A DNA stretch of 64,000 nt from Nitrospira sp. (GTDB lineage: Bacteria > Nitrospirota > Nitrospiria > Nitrospirales > Nitrospiraceae): the NCBI GenBank assembly GCA_005116955.1, contig SWDI01000005.1, forward strand, positions 434,962-498,961. The letters are read 5' to 3'. Position numbers and translations under genes: made by a program. The number at the start of each line of letters is the position of its first letter. Position 1 is the first letter of the stretch. The notes beneath the pieces were generated by a model. The model saw only the letters and a program-made list of their open reading frames with translations, did no database searches and was not told where the DNA came from. Shown here piece by piece: positions 12,715 to 24,372 of this stretch.

Positions 12715-13323
12715 TTACCCCCTTCCAAGCTCCTTGAGCCCTTCACGAATGAGCTCCTTCAACGCCAACGAGCCTGTCGCAGCCTTTGTGGCCCGCTTTA
12801 AGGCTTCCTTGGCATCCTGGGCACGATAGCCCAAGTTTATCAGAGCGGAGAGGGCGTCCTCATACGGGCCATCCACGGTGGAGGTGTCAGCGGTCGCAAG
12901 CCGAGACGAACCCCCCTGGATTTTGCCGACCTTATCCTTCAGTTCAAGCACAATGCGGCCCGCTGACTTTTTGCCGATGCCTGGAACGGTCGCCAGCTTC
13001 TCGACATCCTCGGTTTGGATCGCATGGATCAGATCCGTGATCGGCAAACTCGAGAGCACGCTCAGCGCCAGCTTCGGTCCGATCCCCGACACGCTGGTCA
13101 GCAGCAAAAACGATTCCTTCTCGCTTTGCGACAGAAAGCCGAAGAGCTGGATCGCATCTTCCCGGAGATGCGTGTGAATATTCAGCGCGGTAACTTCGTC
13201 AAGATTCGGGAGGGCGTAATAGGTGCTGAGTGGAATATGAACTTCGTACCCGACCCCTTGCACATCGAGCGTAAGGTGGGTAGGTGCCTTAAATGCCAAC
13301 CGCCCCGTGAGAAAGGCGATCAT
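12715..13323 (-). CDS. ruvA: Holliday junction DNA helicase subunit RuvA
   Basis: A 202-aa protein with all three RuvA domains: N-terminal OB fold (MIAFLTGRL start), two helix-hairpin-helix motifs (VSGIGPKLAL and VPGIGKKSAGRI at about 75 and 112), a flexible linker (~130-150) and the C-terminal UBA-like domain that contacts RuvB (ALINLGYRAQDAKEAL). It binds four-way junctions as a tetramer. yebC is upstream; the ruvC often found between them is absent from this gap. Confidence 0.96.
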   Translation of the reverse strand: MIAFLTGRLAFKAPTHLTLDVQGVGYEVHIPLSTYYALPNLDEVTALNIHTHLREDAIQLFGFLSQSEKESFLLLTSVSGIGPKLALSVLSSLPITDLIHAIQTEDVEKLATVPGIGKKSAGRIVLELKDKVGKIQGGSSRLATADTSTVDGPYEDALSALINLGYRAQDAKEALKRATKAATGSLALKELIREGLKELGRG

Positions 13324-16800: not shown

Positions 16801-16909
16801 ACGGAAATCCCTTGCTAACTGTGCGAATTGACAGAGGTTGACCGTAACACAGGGATTTCTGGTGAGTCAAACTCACACATCTAGTCCACCAGATGGCACA
16901 GATTCCGAT

Positions 16910-17007
16910 GGCTAACGTCACCGCTCAGCGACGCCGGAGGAGTGAAGCAATGGAAGAGACCAAAAACGCTCGTACTCTGGGCGGTCGGCTGCAACGGCTT
17001 GTTATGC
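16910..17007 (-). other. attC-like integron recombination site 2
   Basis: Read on the minus strand, the site starts with R'' GCATAAC and ends with R' GTTAGCC. The inner arms CCGTTGCAGC and GCTGAGCGG pair along their full length (one G-T wobble) if a single G in the first arm is left extrahelical, the feature that sets strand choice by integron integrases. Length 98 nt is within the known attC range. The stop codon TAA of the helicase gene lies inside the R'' box (GCATAA), common in gene cassettes. No IntI gene is in the window. Confidence 0.8.
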
Positions 17008-18015
17008 AGGCAACGCAGGCTTCCAATATGGAAGCGGTGAATCCCCGGGATCGTCAGCTACTATGGCCACACTCTGGGCTGCTCGCGTCACCGCCACGTA
17101 GAGCTTCGCCGCTGGAACTGGATCCAAGTGCGTGCCGGTCTGCACAAATTTCAAAATGCCGCTGGTGGGTACGATCAATACGCGCTCGCAGGTCATCCCT
17201 TTCGCGAGTCGGAAATTAATGTAGTCCAGGTCGAGGGTCTTTCCAGAGTTGGCGCTGTCTCGCAGGCACAGCGGCCGAAACCGAGCCATATACTCATCGA
17301 CATGTTCGCGACGGAGGAGAAACACGCCATCATGATCGGTTACCGTCTCGTTCTGTGATTCCGTTACAGGAAAAGACCAGCTGGAGTCGAAAATGGTGTC
17401 AGAGAATCGTTCTCGAAACCATCTTACGGCCTCGGCATAGGCGTACTTCTTGTTTTTGTTACTGCGTGGGTTAGTGGAGAGCACCGACTGCCGGATATCG
17501 CCGACCATCCAGACCTCAAGGGCCGAGCCCAGAAGTACATCTACAATCTCCCAATCGTGCGCACTTAGATCCTGGACCTCGTCGATGAGGATCTCGTCGT
17601 AGATGCATTCAAGCCGGCGCAATAGCGCTCCGCAGCTGGCCCCTATCAATTCATGCGCCAATCGACCAAGTTCACACGCGTAGACAGCTCCGTTTGAGTC
17701 AATAAAACGGCTGCGGCCCTTTGCCATCTGGTGCGGTCGGCCATCGAAGTTGAAGCCACAAACTCTCTCGCCGGAGAATTTAAATGGCAGAAACGGTCGC
17801 GCGAATTCGCGCAGCAGAAACGTAAACCAACCCGTGGCAACGATGCCAGAGTGCTTACCTGCGTACTTCGCGAGACGATGGCGCAGCTCGGCCTGATTGG
17901 CCTGCGTGTAGGTGAGTACTAATGCACGTCGGTCAGGCGGTAGCGAGGCGCAGTGCTCTACGATTCCTTGAGTCTTACGAGACCCCGCTACCGCAAGAGT
18001 GAGGTAATTAGCCAT
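17002..18015 (-). CDS. Compact UvrD-like helicase, GajB-like partner of a Gabija-type system
   Basis: A 337-aa superfamily 1 helicase-like protein. The N-terminus carries an unusual Walker A, AVAGSRKTQ, where the usual Gly before Lys is Arg. Motif II reads ILIDEVQDLS, motif III-like MVGDIRQS, and the C-terminal motif VI-like YVAVTRAAQSVAIV is present. It is much shorter than UvrD (~700 aa) and than described GajB (~490 aa). The ATG overlaps the stop of the OLD-family gene by 8 bases, so the pair is coupled. The stop lies inside an attC-like site. Gabija-type anti-phage function is inferred from the pairing. Confidence 0.75.
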   Translation of the reverse strand: MANYLTLAVAGSRKTQGIVEHCASLPPDRRALVLTYTQANQAELRHRLAKYAGKHSGIVATGWFTFLLREFARPFLPFKFSGERVCGFNFDGRPHQMAKGRSRFIDSNGAVYACELGRLAHELIGASCGALLRRLECIYDEILIDEVQDLSAHDWEIVDVLLGSALEVWMVGDIRQSVLSTNPRSNKNKKYAYAEAVRWFRERFSDTIFDSSWSFPVTESQNETVTDHDGVFLLRREHVDEYMARFRPLCLRDSANSGKTLDLDYINFRLAKGMTCERVLIVPTSGILKFVQTGTHLDPVPAAKLYVAVTRAAQSVAIVADDPGDSPLPYWKPALPA

Positions 18016-19609
18016 GAATGAACGTGGCCGCGTCGAGCAGGTACTGCGGTGGAGTGATCGTTTCTTCAGCCCTAGCGATGCGAAGGGCCGCCTCTGTCTT
18101 CTCTCGCTTCATCCACGTTTCGAGATTAGCGCTATCCTTGATACCCAGAATGCGCCGAAGCGCCGCCTCGCTGTTGTGATGGATCAGCTGAGGTTCAAGG
18201 GTCTGCCCGTGCTCGCTCTTTCCAATGAATAGCTCGCGGCTTCCACTCGTGAGCCATTCCTCAAGTGGTGCACGCAACTCATCCGGTTCAACACCGTCAT
18301 TGTCGCGGATCGCTGCCACCGTCTTTTTTAGCGCCGCACATAGCTCCAGGCAGCGACCGAGCGACAATCCGCGCATACTGAGTACGTCAACTCCTAGTTC
18401 CATCGGTCGTTTCGCATACTTGTCCTTAAAAATGCGCTCGAAGATGATCTCGTCGGAAGGGCCTTCGACGAGCACGATCTTGTTCGCCAGAACCATGCGA
18501 AGCGTGTCGTACCCAGGGAGCTTCTGAAAGTAGGCAACCGTCTCAGGATCCAACTCGGATAATCGGCGGGGGTTGCCGCCTCCAAGCAGATGGAGGCTGT
18601 CTAGTCCCATGCGATTGATTACGAATGAGCTGTGAGTTGCAACGAAGAGTTGTTGCTGTTCGCCGGCGAGGGACTCCATGCGCGATACGAGAGTAGTGAG
18701 GCTCGTGTGCGTCAGGTGATTTTCTGGCTCTTCAACCATGACGAAGGCGGCACGCTCAGATTGCCGGCTCATGGCCAGTGAGATCTTTATCGCTGCCTGC
18801 TGACCCTGTCCTGACATCGAGAACGGGATTTTTTTGACGTGCGGCGTTACCGCTCCCTCCCAAGATGTGCGGGCGCTTTGATCCATCGCGAGAGCAATTG
18901 GTTGGTCGTGAAGCGATGCGTGTATCGCGGCCATTCGTCCGTTGACGCTCTTGAGGGTGTTCTCAGACATTGACGCCTTGGATTTTCGGTACGCGACGGA
19001 GATCGCGGCTCGCTCGGCAGGTAGCAGGCCGTCGCTGAGAATCTGGCGCATGTGGTAATCGACGCCCGTTGAGGAACGCACCGTACGCGAGTCGATAATC
19101 GCAGTCGCCAATTGTTTCGGACGGTTCTTGATCTCCACATCAGCGAATGAGCGCCAATCGATTGTGTAGTATTCGACTGGCAGGAGAGGCGATGGGTCCT
19201 TAGCCCACTCTTCCCGCTCCGTAGCGTAGTCGGGATCCGGCATAACCCGCATCGTGACTCCCGGACACGCAGTCGTTGGCACATCGGAATTGATCGCCCC
19301 GCACAGCTGCTGGAGTTCGTTGCGATTCTCGAAAAATAGTTCGATGCGGATCTCAGGCCACTGTACGGAGTGGCCTGCAGCACGCTTTTGGACAAATTCC
19401 TCGACTAGTTCCGTGTTGAACCAATAGGGGTTGAGCTCCTCAGATGCCCACCGCCCGTTTATGCGGCCAGTCAATGCCAGGGCGATTGCCTCCATGAGGG
19501 TTGATTTACCGCTCTCATTGGCACCGGCAATTAGATTGAGCCTCGGATTAGGATCCAGCGTGAGATCCTTGTAGATGCGGTAGCCGTGAATTTTTATCTT
19601 TGTGATCAA
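18008..19609 (-). CDS. OLD-family ATPase/TOPRIM nuclease, GajA-like
   Basis: A 533-aa class 2 OLD protein. The N-terminal ABC-type ATPase has Walker A AGANESGKST, signature-like SMSGQGQQAA, Walker B FVMVEEPENHL and a switch His in VATHSS. The C-terminal TOPRIM nuclease has the Glu motif VLVEGPSDE and the D-x-D element IRDND. This order and the coupled UvrD-like gene match Gabija, in which GajA nicks DNA when nucleotide levels fall and GajB helps. The start is TTG at 19609 with GGAGGTCCCG before it. The gene is just inside an attC-like site (19716-19772). Confidence 0.85.
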   Translation of the reverse strand: MITKIKIHGYRIYKDLTLDPNPRLNLIAGANESGKSTLMEAIALALTGRINGRWASEELNPYWFNTELVEEFVQKRAAGHSVQWPEIRIELFFENRNELQQLCGAINSDVPTTACPGVTMRVMPDPDYATEREEWAKDPSPLLPVEYYTIDWRSFADVEIKNRPKQLATAIIDSRTVRSSTGVDYHMRQILSDGLLPAERAAISVAYRKSKASMSENTLKSVNGRMAAIHASLHDQPIALAMDQSARTSWEGAVTPHVKKIPFSMSGQGQQAAIKISLAMSRQSERAAFVMVEEPENHLTHTSLTTLVSRMESLAGEQQQLFVATHSSFVINRMGLDSLHLLGGGNPRRLSELDPETVAYFQKLPGYDTLRMVLANKIVLVEGPSDEIIFERIFKDKYAKRPMELGVDVLSMRGLSLGRCLELCAALKKTVAAIRDNDGVEPDELRAPLEEWLTSGSRELFIGKSEHGQTLEPQLIHHNSEAALRRILGIKDSANLETWMKREKTEAALRIARAEETITPPQYLLDAATFIHG

Positions 19610-19715
19610 CGGGACCTCCGGTGGAAGGAGTAGAGGGCAGAAAGGGGACAGGTACTTTTCAATACCACTTATCGTTGTTTGGCCCCTTGAAAAACAGCCT
19701 ATCCCATTTTCTTCT

Positions 19716-19772
19716 CCCTAACGCTGCGGTGAGCGGCACGTGGAGAGTGTCCGCTCGACCGCGAAGTTATGC
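19716..19772 (-). other. attC-like integron recombination site 1
   Basis: On the minus strand it begins GCATAAC (R'') and ends GTTAGGG (R'). Between them GCGGTCGAGCGG and CCGCTCACCGC form an 11-bp stem that is perfect once one C in the first arm is extrahelical. The 57-nt length equals the shortest classical attC sites. It has the same orientation as the site at 16910-17007, and both flanking genes read in the cassette direction. Confidence 0.82.
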
Positions 19773-19828
19773 GGCTTGAGGGAGCAGTCGTAACACGTGC
19801 TTTACAAAAGACAAAGCGATGTGTCGCG

Positions 19829-20263
19829 TCAATGTAGCAGGCTCCACGGCTGGCTGAATCTCAAAGCGACAATCCCCTTGTCTTGCATGGTGGACGTATA
19901 TTCTGTAGTCTGCTCGTCACCTTTGGTGATTTGAAAGACATGTGTTACGAACTCATGGTGACGACCCTTGAAATCAAACAACTCAGTGTTAAGGCAGATG
20001 GGTACCCCCTTATCAATGTTCGTGTCGTGTCCTCTGATGTCAGGTATGACCTCGAACATGATTCGCATAGAGACAATCTGGCCAGGTGGGAATTGAAAAG
20101 GCCGCCGCACCTTTGTTCTCACTCTCGGAGAATTTGAATTTGCGCATTCGCAGAGTCCAATATTCGCGAAAAATTTGGGTCGGTTCTTGACCTTGCATTT
20201 ATTGATCGACTCGACATGTCCGCTATCAGAGAGCAGCGCTCTGCCCATCCGCTGACTCTTCAC
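19829..20263 (-). CDS. Hypothetical protein, possible integron cassette gene
   Basis: A 144-aa protein with no recognised domain. It has paired cysteines CECANS near residue 39 and a C-terminal half rich in beta-type segments (VSMRIMFEVIP, HEFVTHVFQIT), so a small beta fold is likely. The start is GTG at 20263, or ATG at 20248; neither has a strong ribosome binding site. It ends 57 bases before an attC-like site in the right orientation, so it could be a cassette gene. Its codon use looks less biased than the core genes. It could also be a short remnant. Confidence 0.5.
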   Translation of the reverse strand: MKSQRMGRALLSDSGHVESINKCKVKNRPKFFANIGLCECANSNSPRVRTKVRRPFQFPPGQIVSMRIMFEVIPDIRGHDTNIDKGVPICLNTELFDFKGRHHEFVTHVFQITKGDEQTTEYTSTMQDKGIVALRFSQPWSLLH

Positions 20264-20271
20264 GAGCCATC

Positions 20272-21828
20272 TTAGTGTGTATCAAGCGTCGTACTTGGGG
20301 GCCCATCGTCCCCCAGCCACTGCTTATACTTCTTGTAATGCTCGACCCTGGCACTGCGCACCCAGTTTTCTCGTTGGATGCGCCCCGAAAAGTTGGGTAG
20401 GAGGAACTCGAATTTGTCGATGTCCGCGTGACTCCAGGTTGCCACCTGGCTGAACCAGAAGACGCCCCGCTTGTGCAGGAACCGTTCTAACGCCGGCCCG
20501 ACCCCGCGGATGTGTTTCAGATCATCGCGCGACTCTCCGACCGCTTGCCCCTCCTCCGACGGCTCCACGACACCGGCCTGGTCCAGATCCCCGGTGTGTG
20601 CGCTGATCGTTTCAACCGGCACGTCCCCATTTTGCACGACCATCTGTTCAGCGGGAGTCTCGATCCGCTTCTCGACAACTTTCTCACTGACCTGTGAAGA
20701 CACAACTGAGAGCTCAGCCATCTGCGCCCGAACATCGGGGCTCTCACTCGGGGGCTCGCCGTCGCCCAGCCACTGCTTATATTTCTTGTAGTACTCGACC
20801 TGTGCGCTGCGCACCCAGCTCTCTCGTTGGATGCGTCCCCCAAAGTTGGGTAAGAGAAACTCGAATTTGTCGATGTCTGCTTGGTTCCAGGTCGCCACCT
20901 GGCTGAACCAGAAGACACCTCGCTTGTGCAGGAACCGTTCTAACGCCGGCCCGACCCCGCGGATGTGTTTCAGATCATCGGGCAACTCGCCGACCGCTTG
21001 TCCCTCATCCGACGGCGCACCGGTACTGGCATGGTCCAGATCCCCGGTGTGTGCGCTGATCGTTTCAACCGGCACATCCCCATTTTGCACGACCATCTGT
21101 TCAGCGGGAGTCTCGATCCGCTTCTCGACAACCTTCTCATTGGCCTGCAACGACGTGGCCAGGAGTTCAGCAATCCGTGCCCGAAGTTCGGCGATCATGG
21201 CCACTTCGCTTTCTACGGCCTTGATTCGGACTAGCTTCTCTGGATTGTCGAGCGGCACATCCCCATTCTGTTCCGTGGGAGTCACGATCCGCTTCTCGAC
21301 AACCCCTTCACAGACCTCCAACACCGCAGCCCGGAGTTCAATCATCTGCGCACGAAGATCGGTGATCACAGCGACCTGAGCTTCTAACGCTTTGATCCGG
21401 GCCAGCTGCTCCGGATTGTCAACCGGCACCAACACCCGCCCTTCGCTACGCCTCTCCCCGGCCTGTGAAGAAAAGGGTTTGAGCTGAGCGATCCGCGTAA
21501 ACAGCCCAGCGATCATGGCGACCTCACCTTCCAACGCCTTGATCCGAGCGAGCTGCTCCGGATTGTCCACTGGCCGATCGACGACCTTCTCCACCGGTAC
21601 TTCAACACGTTTCAGCACCACGCGTTCCACCGGCACCTCGACCCGCTTCTCAACCGTTCGAATCTCTGGCGGTTGACTAGCGAGCATGGTGACCTTACTC
21701 ATGAGGCGCTCCACCTCACGACGCTTGTCGTCTATCACTGGTCCCAGCACCATCCCCTTGATCCCCCACCCCAGGAAACCAGCTCCCACCATCGTCCAAA
21801 GCCAGCAGGTCCAGTGCGCAAACATCAC
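20272..21828 (-). CDS. Membrane-anchored helix-hairpin-helix protein with internal duplication
   Basis: A 518-aa protein. Residues 5-28 form one transmembrane helix, followed by a long acidic/basic coiled-coil-like region with repeated phrases (NPEQLARIKALE, VVEKRIETPAEQ). Two near-identical C-terminal domains (~290-360 and ~445-510) start with DDLKHIRGVGPALERFLHKRG, a helix-hairpin-helix of the kind seen in DNA-binding and ribosomal-protein-associated modules. The two copies are 453 bp apart. The GTG at 21828 overlaps the stop of the OmpA-domain gene, so the two are probably made together. Function unknown; an envelope-linked nucleic acid binder is one guess. Confidence 0.7.
   Translation of the reverse strand: MMFAHWTCWLWTMVGAGFLGWGIKGMVLGPVIDDKRREVERLMSKVTMLASQPPEIRTVEKRVEVPVERVVLKRVEVPVEKVVDRPVDNPEQLARIKALEGEVAMIAGLFTRIAQLKPFSSQAGERRSEGRVLVPVDNPEQLARIKALEAQVAVITDLRAQMIELRAAVLEVCEGVVEKRIVTPTEQNGDVPLDNPEKLVRIKAVESEVAMIAELRARIAELLATSLQANEKVVEKRIETPAEQMVVQNGDVPVETISAHTGDLDHASTGAPSDEGQAVGELPDDLKHIRGVGPALERFLHKRGVFWFSQVATWNQADIDKFEFLLPNFGGRIQRESWVRSAQVEYYKKYKQWLGDGEPPSESPDVRAQMAELSVVSSQVSEKVVEKRIETPAEQMVVQNGDVPVETISAHTGDLDQAGVVEPSEEGQAVGESRDDLKHIRGVGPALERFLHKRGVFWFSQVATWSHADIDKFEFLLPNFSGRIQRENWVRSARVEHYKKYKQWLGDDGPPSTTLDTH
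20314..21143 (-). repeat. Tandem in-frame duplication of ~375 bp units at 453-bp spacing
   Basis: Bases 20314 to about 20690 recur at 20767 to about 21143 with few changes; for example the 3' ends of both units share the coding for ETPAEQMVVQNGDVPVETIS without change. The offset is a whole number of codons (151), so the protein gains a second helix-hairpin-helix domain with its linker. High DNA identity suggests a recent duplication or ongoing gene conversion. Confidence 0.85.
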
Positions 21829-22403
21829 GACTGCTCTCCCTTGGTTCTGATGGAGAATTCGATCTGCCGGTTTTGCTGGCGCCCCTCCTCGGTAGAATTC
21901 TCGGTGATCGGTCGCGACGCTCCATACCCTTTGGAAGCCAGACGATCAGCAACGATCCCTTTTGAGATTAGATAGTCGACGACGGCCTTGGCCCGCTGTT
22001 CCGAGAGGATCGGATTCGTGGGCTCCGATCCGACGTTGTCTGTATGCCCGCCAACTTCGAAGGCAGCCGTGGGATCTTCTTGTAAAATCGTGGCCACGCT
22101 ATTCAGGACAGTTTTCCCCTCCGGCAGCAGCGTGGCGCTATTGATTCGGAACAGCATCGTTGTCCCCATCAGCAGCTCATCAATCTTCTTTTTGAGCACG
22201 GCTGATGCTGGTACCGGTGGCACTGGTGGCAGTACTGGTGATGGCCGTGGCTCGATGATTTTTGGAATCGGTGGAGGAATTTCAGCCGGGGTTTCCAATG
22301 CAACCGGTGGAGGCGACGTGACTGAACCTTCGCCACAGAAGAGGAACACGGTGCCAAGGATGAATAACCCGAGGAGCGCCAAGTACGGGTCCTTGCCCTG
22401 CAT
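21825..22403 (-). CDS. OmpA-family C-terminal domain lipoprotein-like/membrane protein
   Basis: A 192-aa protein with one hydrophobic N-terminal segment (ALLGLFILGTVFLFCG), a long Pro-rich linker (~30-70) and a C-terminal OmpA peptidoglycan-binding domain. The domain has the signature segment FEVGGHTDNVGSEPTN and the LSEQRAKAVVDYLISKGI helix with Asp and Arg that bind diaminopimelate. It would anchor to the cell wall from the inner membrane. The ATG at 22403 is chosen over a TTG at 22430. It overlaps the helix-hairpin-helix gene and probably forms a two-gene unit. Confidence 0.82.
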   Translation of the reverse strand: MQGKDPYLALLGLFILGTVFLFCGEGSVTSPPPVALETPAEIPPPIPKIIEPRPSPVLPPVPPVPASAVLKKKIDELLMGTTMLFRINSATLLPEGKTVLNSVATILQEDPTAAFEVGGHTDNVGSEPTNPILSEQRAKAVVDYLISKGIVADRLASKGYGASRPITENSTEEGRQQNRQIEFSIRTKGEQS

Positions 22404-22527
22404 GACAATCACCTTCGCTAAGGAGAGCAACCTAGCACGCCGCAGCAGAATATGGCTGAATGGGGAAAGCCGTCAAGGGGTTGGTCTTGCGCCATCGTCT
22501 TCAGAGGGGTTCGAACTGATGGGCTTG

Positions 22528-24372
22528 CTAAATGGAATATTGAAAGACTGGTTTCGCCCCGATGGCCTGGGCCAGAACACCCCGGCGTTTCAATTCGTCG
22601 AGAATGCGAGCGGTGGCTGCGTCAAAATCCGTGGGGCCGGAGAGGACGACATCCGTATTCGGCGGCGGCTCCTCCTCAGTCTTGCTCATGTGGACGGCAA
22701 TGACCGGTGCGGGGTGGACGAGTGTCCTAATCGCCTGCGAAGCTTCTTGATAGGCCAAACCGAAAGGATTCGTGGTGGAGACAACAATGAGGCCCGTGTC
22801 GGTGAGGAGACGCGCCACTTCGCCATAGCGTCGAGCCATTTCCGTGGTCTCCCCCCGCTCTTCTTCGCTCAGATCCGCATCTAACCCACGACGCAGATTT
22901 TCTCCGTCCAATAGGTAGGCATGGCGACCATCCGCCACGAGACGACCTTCGAGCTTTCTGGCCAGGAATGATTTGCCAGTATGTCGTCCCCCGGTAATCA
23001 GGACCACCGCTGCACGGTGGCCATACTGTTGTGCTCGGTCCTCGACCGTGACTTCACCCTTGACCCACGCAAAGTCGCGCCGTCTGGCTTCTTCGCGGAG
23101 AAATTCCTGATCGTCATGGACCAGTTCGGTGATGATGCCACCGCCCGCAATATCGTATTCGTCCACCAAAACAAACCGGCCCGTAGCCTCGAACGACGCC
23201 GAGAGGTCGAACGCCACCGGCGTTTTAGTGCGCAAGGTCAATTCAGCTACCTGATTCTTATTCACCGTATTGCTGCCCTGTTGCTGAGCCAAGTCCATCG
23301 TATCGATAATCCGATGGATCGACGCTACCTCGCAGTCCACTTCTTTCGTCGCCACGCGCAAGAGATATTTGCGCTCCTTTTCCAGCGGCCTCTTGCCGAG
23401 CCAAAACAGGTTAGCCCGAAAGGCCGTGGAGACGGAGGGAAGGTGCTCCTGGTGCGAGGCGATCTCCCCACGCTCCACAAAGATCTGGTCATCGAGCGTC
23501 ACACCGATCGATTGCCCTGCCTGGCCTTCGGTCGGTTGCGGCTCGATATTGAAGGCTTCGACTGTCCGGATATTGGCGCGTTTGTTCGAGGGCGAGAACA
23601 CGAGATGATCGCCGACTTTTAACTGCCCGGCGGCAATGCGACCCGTGATGATTCGGCGCGCATCAAACTTATAGACGTCCTGTACCGGCATTCGGAGAGG
23701 TTGTTCCGAACGGGCCGCTTCTTTCTGAAACCCACCGAGCGTTTCCAGGACGGTCGCGCCGGTATACCAGGGCATCTGCTCGCTGCGATTGGCAATGTTG
23801 TCGCCGAGCTTGGCACTCACTGGAATGAACTGCAACGGCACAGCTTTGAACTGTCCCAGAAATTCACGATACTCTTTTTCAATCCCGTCGAACACGTCTT
23901 GCCGGTAGCCCACCAAATCCATCTTGTTGACCACCACCGCAAACTGTCGGACGCCCAGCAACGATAAGAGATAGCCGTGCTTCTTGGACTGCTCCTTCAC
24001 GCCTTCCAACGCATCGATGAGCAACAGGGCCGCCTCGGCCCGCGCTGCGCCGGAAATCATGTTCTTGAGAAACTCTTTGTGCCCGGGCGCATCGATGATG
24101 ATGTATTGCCGGCCCTTCCACATGAAAAACGTGCGAGCCGTATCGATCGTAATCCCCTGCTCCTGCTCTTCGAGAAAGGCGTCGAAAAGGAAGGCGTATT
24201 CGAATTCCTTCCCCTGTTGCTTACAGATGGCCTGCACTTTTTCCAACTTACCGTCGGGAAGGGAGCCGGTATCGGCATACAGTCGGCCGAGCAACGTGGA
24301 CTTGCCATGATCCACATGGCCGACGATCACGATATTCAAATTTTCAGACGGCTTTGTTTCGATCAGTGTCAT
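22528..24372 (-). CDS. cysN: Sulfate adenylyltransferase subunit 1 fused to APS kinase (CysNC)
   Basis: A 614-aa fusion. The N-terminal ~430 residues are a translational-GTPase-like CysN with G1 [17 protein letters not shown] (G3) and NKMD (G4), which drives sulfate activation by CysD. The C-terminal ~170 residues are APS kinase-like with P-loop [10 protein letters not shown] and [11 protein letters not shown]. The APS kinase loop differs from the usual GLSGSGKS, so kinase activity deserves a check. In this operon APS is probably reduced directly by CysH, which would make the kinase optional. Last gene of the cys operon. Confidence 0.93.

What the first reader, a model, noticed from the sequence alone, without database searches (positions are those of the whole stretch)
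16910..19772. Gabija-like defence pair as a two-gene integron cassette between attC sites
The OLD-nuclease and UvrD-like genes lie between two attC-like sites in the same orientation. Each site has R''/R' boxes ending GCATAAC...GTTAG, long inner arms that pair fully, and one extrahelical base in the first arm. Seen directly: the boxes, stems and order. Known: integron cassettes carry an attC at the 3' end and can move defence genes. Inferred: the pair is or was a mobile cassette in an integrase-less cluster (CALIN) in Nitrospira. A two-gene cassette of ~2.8 kb is unusually large.
Basis: partly seen in the sequence, partly recalled or inferred. Interest (0 to 1): 0.9.

Follow-up and report, generated by a model that had tools for sequence, protein, structure and literature searches.

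The report
Stranded, damaged Gabija integron cassette
A Nitrospira-type bacterium carries a two-gene anti-phage system (Gabija) packaged as an integron gene cassette between two genuine attC sites but without any integron integrase; one of its genes has lost a conserved piece, and close relatives keep only the cassette's tail end.

Summary
A covariance model built only from 22 attC sites beside integron integrases in relatives, not from this window, finds exactly two sites in the 64 kb: 16910-17007 (40.5 bits) and 19716-19772 (28.2 bits), both on the minus strand and flanking the pair. It also recovers class 1 integron attCs (22.7-42.2 bits), and gives one hit above 20 bits in 832 kb around Gabija genes from other organisms. 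The pair is a true GajA/GajB of the short-GajB subtype (682 and 399 bits). The assembly holds no integron integrase above cut-off. So it is a 2,806-bp two-gene cassette (16916-19721) in a CALIN.

New here: (1) three relatives (94-95% identical) lack the pair but keep site 1 plus the last 17 codons of gajB, so the cassette is ancestral and was lost by ordinary deletion, not by attC excision. (2) gajB has a 69-nt in-frame deletion removing a conserved SF1 helicase motif, so the system may be inactive. (3) Two same-genus genomes carry Gabija, one related at 77% and one at only 37%, directly beside an attI-like element, so Nitrospira integrons captured Gabija more than once. Defence genes in integrons are already known; this is a new member.

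The parts
16910..17007 (-). attC site 1, 3' end of the Gabija cassette (R'' 17001-17007 GCATAAC, R' 16910-16916 GTTAGCC); the gajB stop codon lies inside R''
   Evidence: R1 covariance model 40.5 bits, E 3.3e-07 in window; best attC of the whole genome; kept in three relatives lacking the cassette
19716..19772 (-). attC site 2, belonging to the cassette upstream of Gabija (R'' 19766-19772 GCATAAC, R' 19716-19722 GTTAGGG)
   Evidence: R1 28.2 bits; DNA fold z -3.9; 83% identical over 54 nt to an attC in an intI-bearing array of G064 (that array site scores 25.9 bits)
16916..19721 (-). the excisable cassette (between the two G|TT cleavage points), 2,806 bp, two genes
   Evidence: deduced from the R' boxes of the two sites and the known G|TT cleavage point of integron integrases
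18008..19609 (-). gajA, 533 aa, TTG start after a GGAGGT ribosome site; OLD-like ATPase plus TOPRIM nuclease, intact
   Evidence: PADLOC GajA PDLC00098 682 bits over 1-531; PF20469 TOPRIM; all family-invariant residues present
17002..18015 (-). gajB, 337 aa, UvrD-like, overlaps gajA by 8 nt; carries an internal in-frame 69-nt deletion
   Evidence: PADLOC GajB PDLC00140 399 bits; alignment with 7 homologues
17406..17410 (-). junction of the 69-nt deletion in gajB (after residue 203); removes the 23 aa equivalent to ENRGELQIIENNTTWRCHPEIAT, between short AACG repeats
   Evidence: [WYH]RC..I motif common among the 80 homologous GajBs
19773..20263 (-). remainder of the preceding cassette, with an unassigned 144-aa ORF (19829-20263); its 5' end has no recognisable att site
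   Evidence: no family match; no homologue of this ORF region in 78 other genomes of the genus, only short matches at the attC; lower GC 0.487
17050..20263 (.). segment absent from relatives G138, G075 and G119, replaced there by about 42 nt

Best explanation
The pair is a two-gene Gabija defence system carried as one integron cassette, stranded in an integrase-less cluster of two attC sites (CALIN) upstream of an Mrp-type ATPase gene. Shown: two genuine attC sites in gene orientation, an intact GajA, a GajB lacking a conserved helicase segment, no integrase in the assembly, and cassette remnants in close relatives. Inferred: an integron integrase, now lost or acting from elsewhere, placed this cassette and an upstream one here in an ancestor; the cassette has since decayed, by a 69-nt deletion in gajB in this genome and by non-attC deletion in relatives. 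If active, it would work as Gabija: GajA, a nucleotide-sensing nicking nuclease, together with GajB, an SF1 ATPase, attacks phage DNA. The gajB lesion makes full activity doubtful.
For: attC. Positive control on class 1 and Gemmatirosa integrons. Background in 832 kb of other Gabija loci. Gabija identity. No integrase over cut-off: against 20 of 236 genomes of the order that have one over cut-off. Remnant site 1 plus gajB tail (GDSPLPYWNPASPA*) in three relatives. gajB deletion. Gabija beside an attI-like element in G125 and G069, with attC arms after gajB. Closest relative of site 2 is an attC inside an intI-bearing array.
Against: The 5' boundary of the upstream cassette (about 20264) shows no att site, so the entry route is not reconstructed. 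No pre-insertion allele was found: outgroups differ in sequence across the joint. Site 1 folds no better than shuffles by energy. dN is far below dS in gajA and gajB, but dS is saturated and this covers the whole branch to G027/G125, so it does not show that selection still acts here.
Confidence: 0.88

Rival explanations
1. The cassette is intact and functional: the 23-residue loss in GajB is tolerated, or is an assembly error, and the cassette can be mobilised by an integrase in trans.
For: The deletion is in frame; GajA and the Walker A, Walker B and C-terminal motifs of GajB are intact; attC site 1 keeps the consensus boxes.
Against: The lost segment holds the [WYH]RC..I motif found across homologues; T7 resistance requires both Gabija genes (PMC8136825); remnants in three relatives point to decay.
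Confidence: 0.3
2. The attC-like sites are real but the pair is not one excisable cassette: Gabija arrived by another route between two unrelated attC remnants.
For: One edge (20264) is not an att junction; the empty alleles arose by ordinary deletion.
Against: The gajB stop codon lies inside R'' of site 1, as is usual for cassettes; the same gene order with an attC arm directly after gajB occurs in three other genomes; both sites share the genes' orientation.
Confidence: 0.07
3. The sites are chance palindromes.
For: Site 1 is not unusually stable; relaxed box scans give some chance hits (10 in 320 kb of shuffled sequence).
Against: An independently trained covariance model gives 40.5 and 28.2 bits, and only 4 hits at E<=10 in 3.65 Mb, two of them flanking this pair; one hit above 20 bits in 832 kb of background; class 1 attCs score 22.7-42.2.
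Confidence: 0.02

Closest known systems
Gabija anti-phage system (GajA/GajB; Bacillus cereus VD045 type, PDB 8sm3, 8j4t)
   Same: OLD-like ATPase/TOPRIM GajA followed by overlapping UvrD-like GajB
   Different: Short-GajB subtype (non-integron homologues mostly about 340-385 aa, against 494 aa in B. cereus); this copy has 337 aa because of an internal deletion; distant from the solved Gabija in sequence
Defence genes in integron cassettes (Darracq 2025, Kieffer 2025, Getz 2025; read here through the review PMC12409362)
   Same: Anti-phage genes as attC-bounded cassettes; defence systems of more than two genes reported absent from integrons
   Different: A two-gene nuclease-helicase system in an integrase-less cluster of a nitrite-oxidiser lineage; small size is a property of the subtype, not of residence in a cassette
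CALIN (clusters of attC lacking an integrase; IntegronFinder 2.0, PMC9024848)
   Same: At least two attC sites close together with no integrase; two CALINs were reported for Candidatus Nitrospira inopinata
   Different: This one carries an identified defence system and has a traceable decay history in sister genomes

Membership tests
Integron cassette in a CALIN | At least two attC sites of known architecture within a few kb, same orientation | tested here: met
   40.5 and 28.2 bits, about 2.7 kb apart, both minus
Integron cassette in a CALIN | No integron integrase nearby or in the genome | tested here: met
   TIGR02249 best partial match 84 bits, cut-off 265; none on this contig
Integron cassette in a CALIN | Gene or genes oriented towards the attC at the 3' end | tested here: met
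   gajA and gajB minus, site 1 minus at the 3' end, gajB stop inside R''
Integron cassette in a CALIN | Excision and integration by an IntI | not testable with these tools
   needs a recombination assay
Gabija | GajA: ABC-type ATPase plus OLD TOPRIM | tested here: met
   682 bits PDLC00098; PF13175, PF13304 and PF20469 above cut-off
Gabija | GajB: UvrD-like helicase encoded directly downstream | tested here: met
   399 bits PDLC00140; PF00580 above cut-off; 8-nt overlap with gajA
Gabija | Complete set of conserved SF1 motifs in GajB | tested here: not met
   23 aa including the [WYH]RC..I motif missing
Gabija | Anti-phage activity needing both proteins | not testable with these tools
   needs a phage assay; requirement of both genes reported in PMC8136825

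The most novel reading that the evidence does not exclude
Integrons of the genus Nitrospira repeatedly capture Gabija systems of divergent lineages (GajA only 37% identical) at or near attI, the first-cassette position. The integron would then act in this lineage as a recurrent platform for complete two-gene nuclease-helicase immunity, and finished cassettes also end up stranded at distant chromosomal sites.
Probability: 0.45. Interest if true: 0.55.

Novelty: new member of a known kind. Interest (0 to 1): 0.42.

Why it matters
It extends integron-borne defence, so far shown in vibrios and mobile integrons, to an environmental nitrite-oxidiser lineage and to a complete two-gene Gabija. It offers a natural series (Gabija beside an attI-like element in some genomes, stranded and damaged here, reduced to a tail plus attC in three relatives) in which gain and loss of a defence cassette can be followed without a resident integrase.

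Tried and rejected
Rfam has no attC family and gave only tRNAs in the window, so a model was built here. Cassette-driven streamlining of GajB was considered and rejected: non-integron homologues are equally short. attC-mediated excision in the relatives was considered and rejected, because their breakpoints keep gajB codons and lose site 2. A pre-insertion target (attG-type) was sought in outgroups; G086 has a GTTGAAC at roughly the matching place, but the adjacent 20 nt do not align, so no claim is made. Attachment of Gabija to integrons outside Nitrospira was tested on 80 loci: no convincing attC after gajB. Sigma-70-like promoters in the region: none found, which says little. A weak PDB hit for a GajB homologue (3NT oxygenase subunit) was treated as chance. 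Literature searches for Gabija in integrons found no direct report in the open library, but the 2025 Science papers themselves were not read here, so priority cannot be claimed.

Full report
Check of the observation. Since Rfam offers no attC family (one search found only tRNAs), I trained a model on independent data. TIGR02249 found full integron integrases over cut-off in 20 of 236 genomes of the order, including members of the same genus, but none in the window's own genome. From 18 fetched loci around these integrases I took 22 attC-like sites beside the integrases. They aligned without gaps, and the structure showed covariation well above slid controls (0.273 against at most 0.158). The model R1 was then run on the window, which had not contributed to it.

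Result. R1 finds two sites in the window and no other at E<=10: 40.5 bits at 16910-17007 and 28.2 bits at 19716-19772, same strand as the genes. In the whole 3.65 Mb assembly there are four hits at E<=10; these are two of them. As a positive control the model finds four attCs in a five-cassette class 1 integron and one in a second class 1 integron (22.7-42.2 bits), plus 16 in a Gemmatirosa array. As background, 832 kb around Gabija genes of 80 other organisms gives one hit above 20 bits, and that one is not next to gajB. Site 2 is strongly folded (z -3.9). Site 1 takes the attC shape but is not unusually stable. Both have unpaired bases in the first arm, as attCs do. Site 2's nearest relative in the genus is an attC inside an intI-bearing array of G064 (83% over 54 nt; 25.9 bits).

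The genes. gajA (18008-19609) and gajB (17002-18015) overlap by 8 nt. PADLOC gives GajA 682 bits and GajB 399 bits; Pfam gives AAA_15, AAA_21, OLD-like TOPRIM and UvrD-helicase above cut-off. GajA keeps every family-invariant residue. GajB lacks 23 residues after position 203 compared with seven homologues. The lost piece contains WRCHPEIA, a motif ([WYH]RC..I) seen across the 80 further homologues, and lies in the SF1 region of UvrD-type helicases (motif IV, by my own knowledge of SF1A helicases). The DNA shows a 69-nt in-frame gap between short AACG repeats. Reported T7 resistance needs both Gabija genes (PMC8136825), so this copy may be inactive.

The cassette. By the G|TT rule the excisable unit is 16916-19721, 2,806 bp. 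Thirty cassettes in relatives' arrays have a median of 766 bp and a maximum of 2,542 bp, so this one is large. The subtype's GajB is short everywhere (mostly about 340-385 aa in non-integron homologues), so the small size was not produced by life in a cassette.

History at this locus. Three relatives (G138, G075, G119; 94-95% identical over two flanking blocks) lack 17050-20263 but keep site 1 (30.1 bits in G075, 16.4 bits and decaying in the other two) and the last 17 codons of gajB: GDSPLPYWNPASPA* against GDSPLPYWKPALPA* here. That tail is true gajB, because the 71-74% identical GajBs of G027 and G125 have the homologous end. So the cassette was present in the common ancestor and was lost there by a deletion that ignored the att sites. 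G076 and G077 carry other rearrangements, and G086 a different 1.9-kb insert, at the same place. How the cassette entered is not resolved: no pre-insertion allele aligns across the joint, and the 5' edge near 20264 has no att site.

Elsewhere in the genus. G125 (GajA 77%) has Gabija directly after an element that lies beside intI in at least eight other integrons, that is, an attI-like region, with attC arms after gajB whose R' box has decayed. G027 (78%; same family, another genus) has that element, one further cassette-like gene with degenerate arms, then Gabija. G069 has a quite different Gabija (GajA 37%) right after the same element and followed by an attC of 22.6 bits. Nitrospira integrons therefore captured Gabija at least twice. 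attC-like sites occur in 60 of 79 genomes of the genus. Eight proteins picked by eye from intI-adjacent cassettes include matches to defence-type nuclease families such as type IV restriction.

What is known. Anti-phage genes in integron cassettes were established in 2025 for vibrios and mobile integrons (reviewed in PMC12409362), with systems of more than two genes reported absent. Two CALINs were reported for Candidatus Nitrospira inopinata (PMC9024848). I found no report of a Gabija cassette in the open library, but the primary Science papers were not read here. The finding is a well-supported new member of a known kind, with an instructive decay history; present mobility and present activity are not shown.

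Limits. Nitrospira is supported by 76-77% synteny with a record titled 'Nitrospira sp. Bin_54_10'. R1's E-values are rough because calibration was shortened; the bit scores and the controls carry the argument. Absence of an integrase rests on an 8-contig assembly rated 99.84% complete.

Noticed in passing
G000:C3:342975-347000 (locus L115:6976-10980): The own genome holds a second, degenerate integron locus: an attI-like element (L115:10890-10980), a group II intron-type reverse transcriptase ORF, and one attC (29.4 bits), with no integrase.
   Followed up: partly
L094:2926-2992, L113:10227-10292, L112:10827-10893, L042:7490-7555, L115:6915-6979 and 13190-13254: A conserved stretch of about 67 bp (ATGCGGCAGGGCTGAGGACCGC...TTGGCC) follows the R' box in several Nitrospira integrons; nature unknown.
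   Followed up: no
L112:10690-10728 and L113:10091-10129: In G027 and G125 the gajB frame has no stop at the attC and reads through its first arm, adding QQGVEADVE-like residues.
   Followed up: no
L039-L056 (G046, G147, G139 and others): Nitrospira integrases point in the same direction as their cassettes (inverted arrangement, as reported for some other lineages, from memory).
   Followed up: no
window 16801-22528: The gap between the Mrp-type gene and the next conserved block is a variable spot in close relatives: 5 kb of other genes in G077, a DUF2971-like gene plus a HicAB-like pair in G086, nothing in more distant genomes.
   Followed up: partly
window 20272-21828: 518-aa protein with two repeated helix-hairpin-helix domains like the C-terminal extensions of some alphaproteobacterial NuoE, L21 and phasin proteins; its internal repeats vary between relatives.
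   Followed up: no
window 19829-20263: 144-aa ORF with no family match and no homologue in the genus, in the segment before attC site 2.
   Followed up: no
G115, G075, G109 and others: Many attC hits are single sites scattered over several contigs, suggesting frequent stranded single cassettes in Nitrospira genomes.
   Followed up: no
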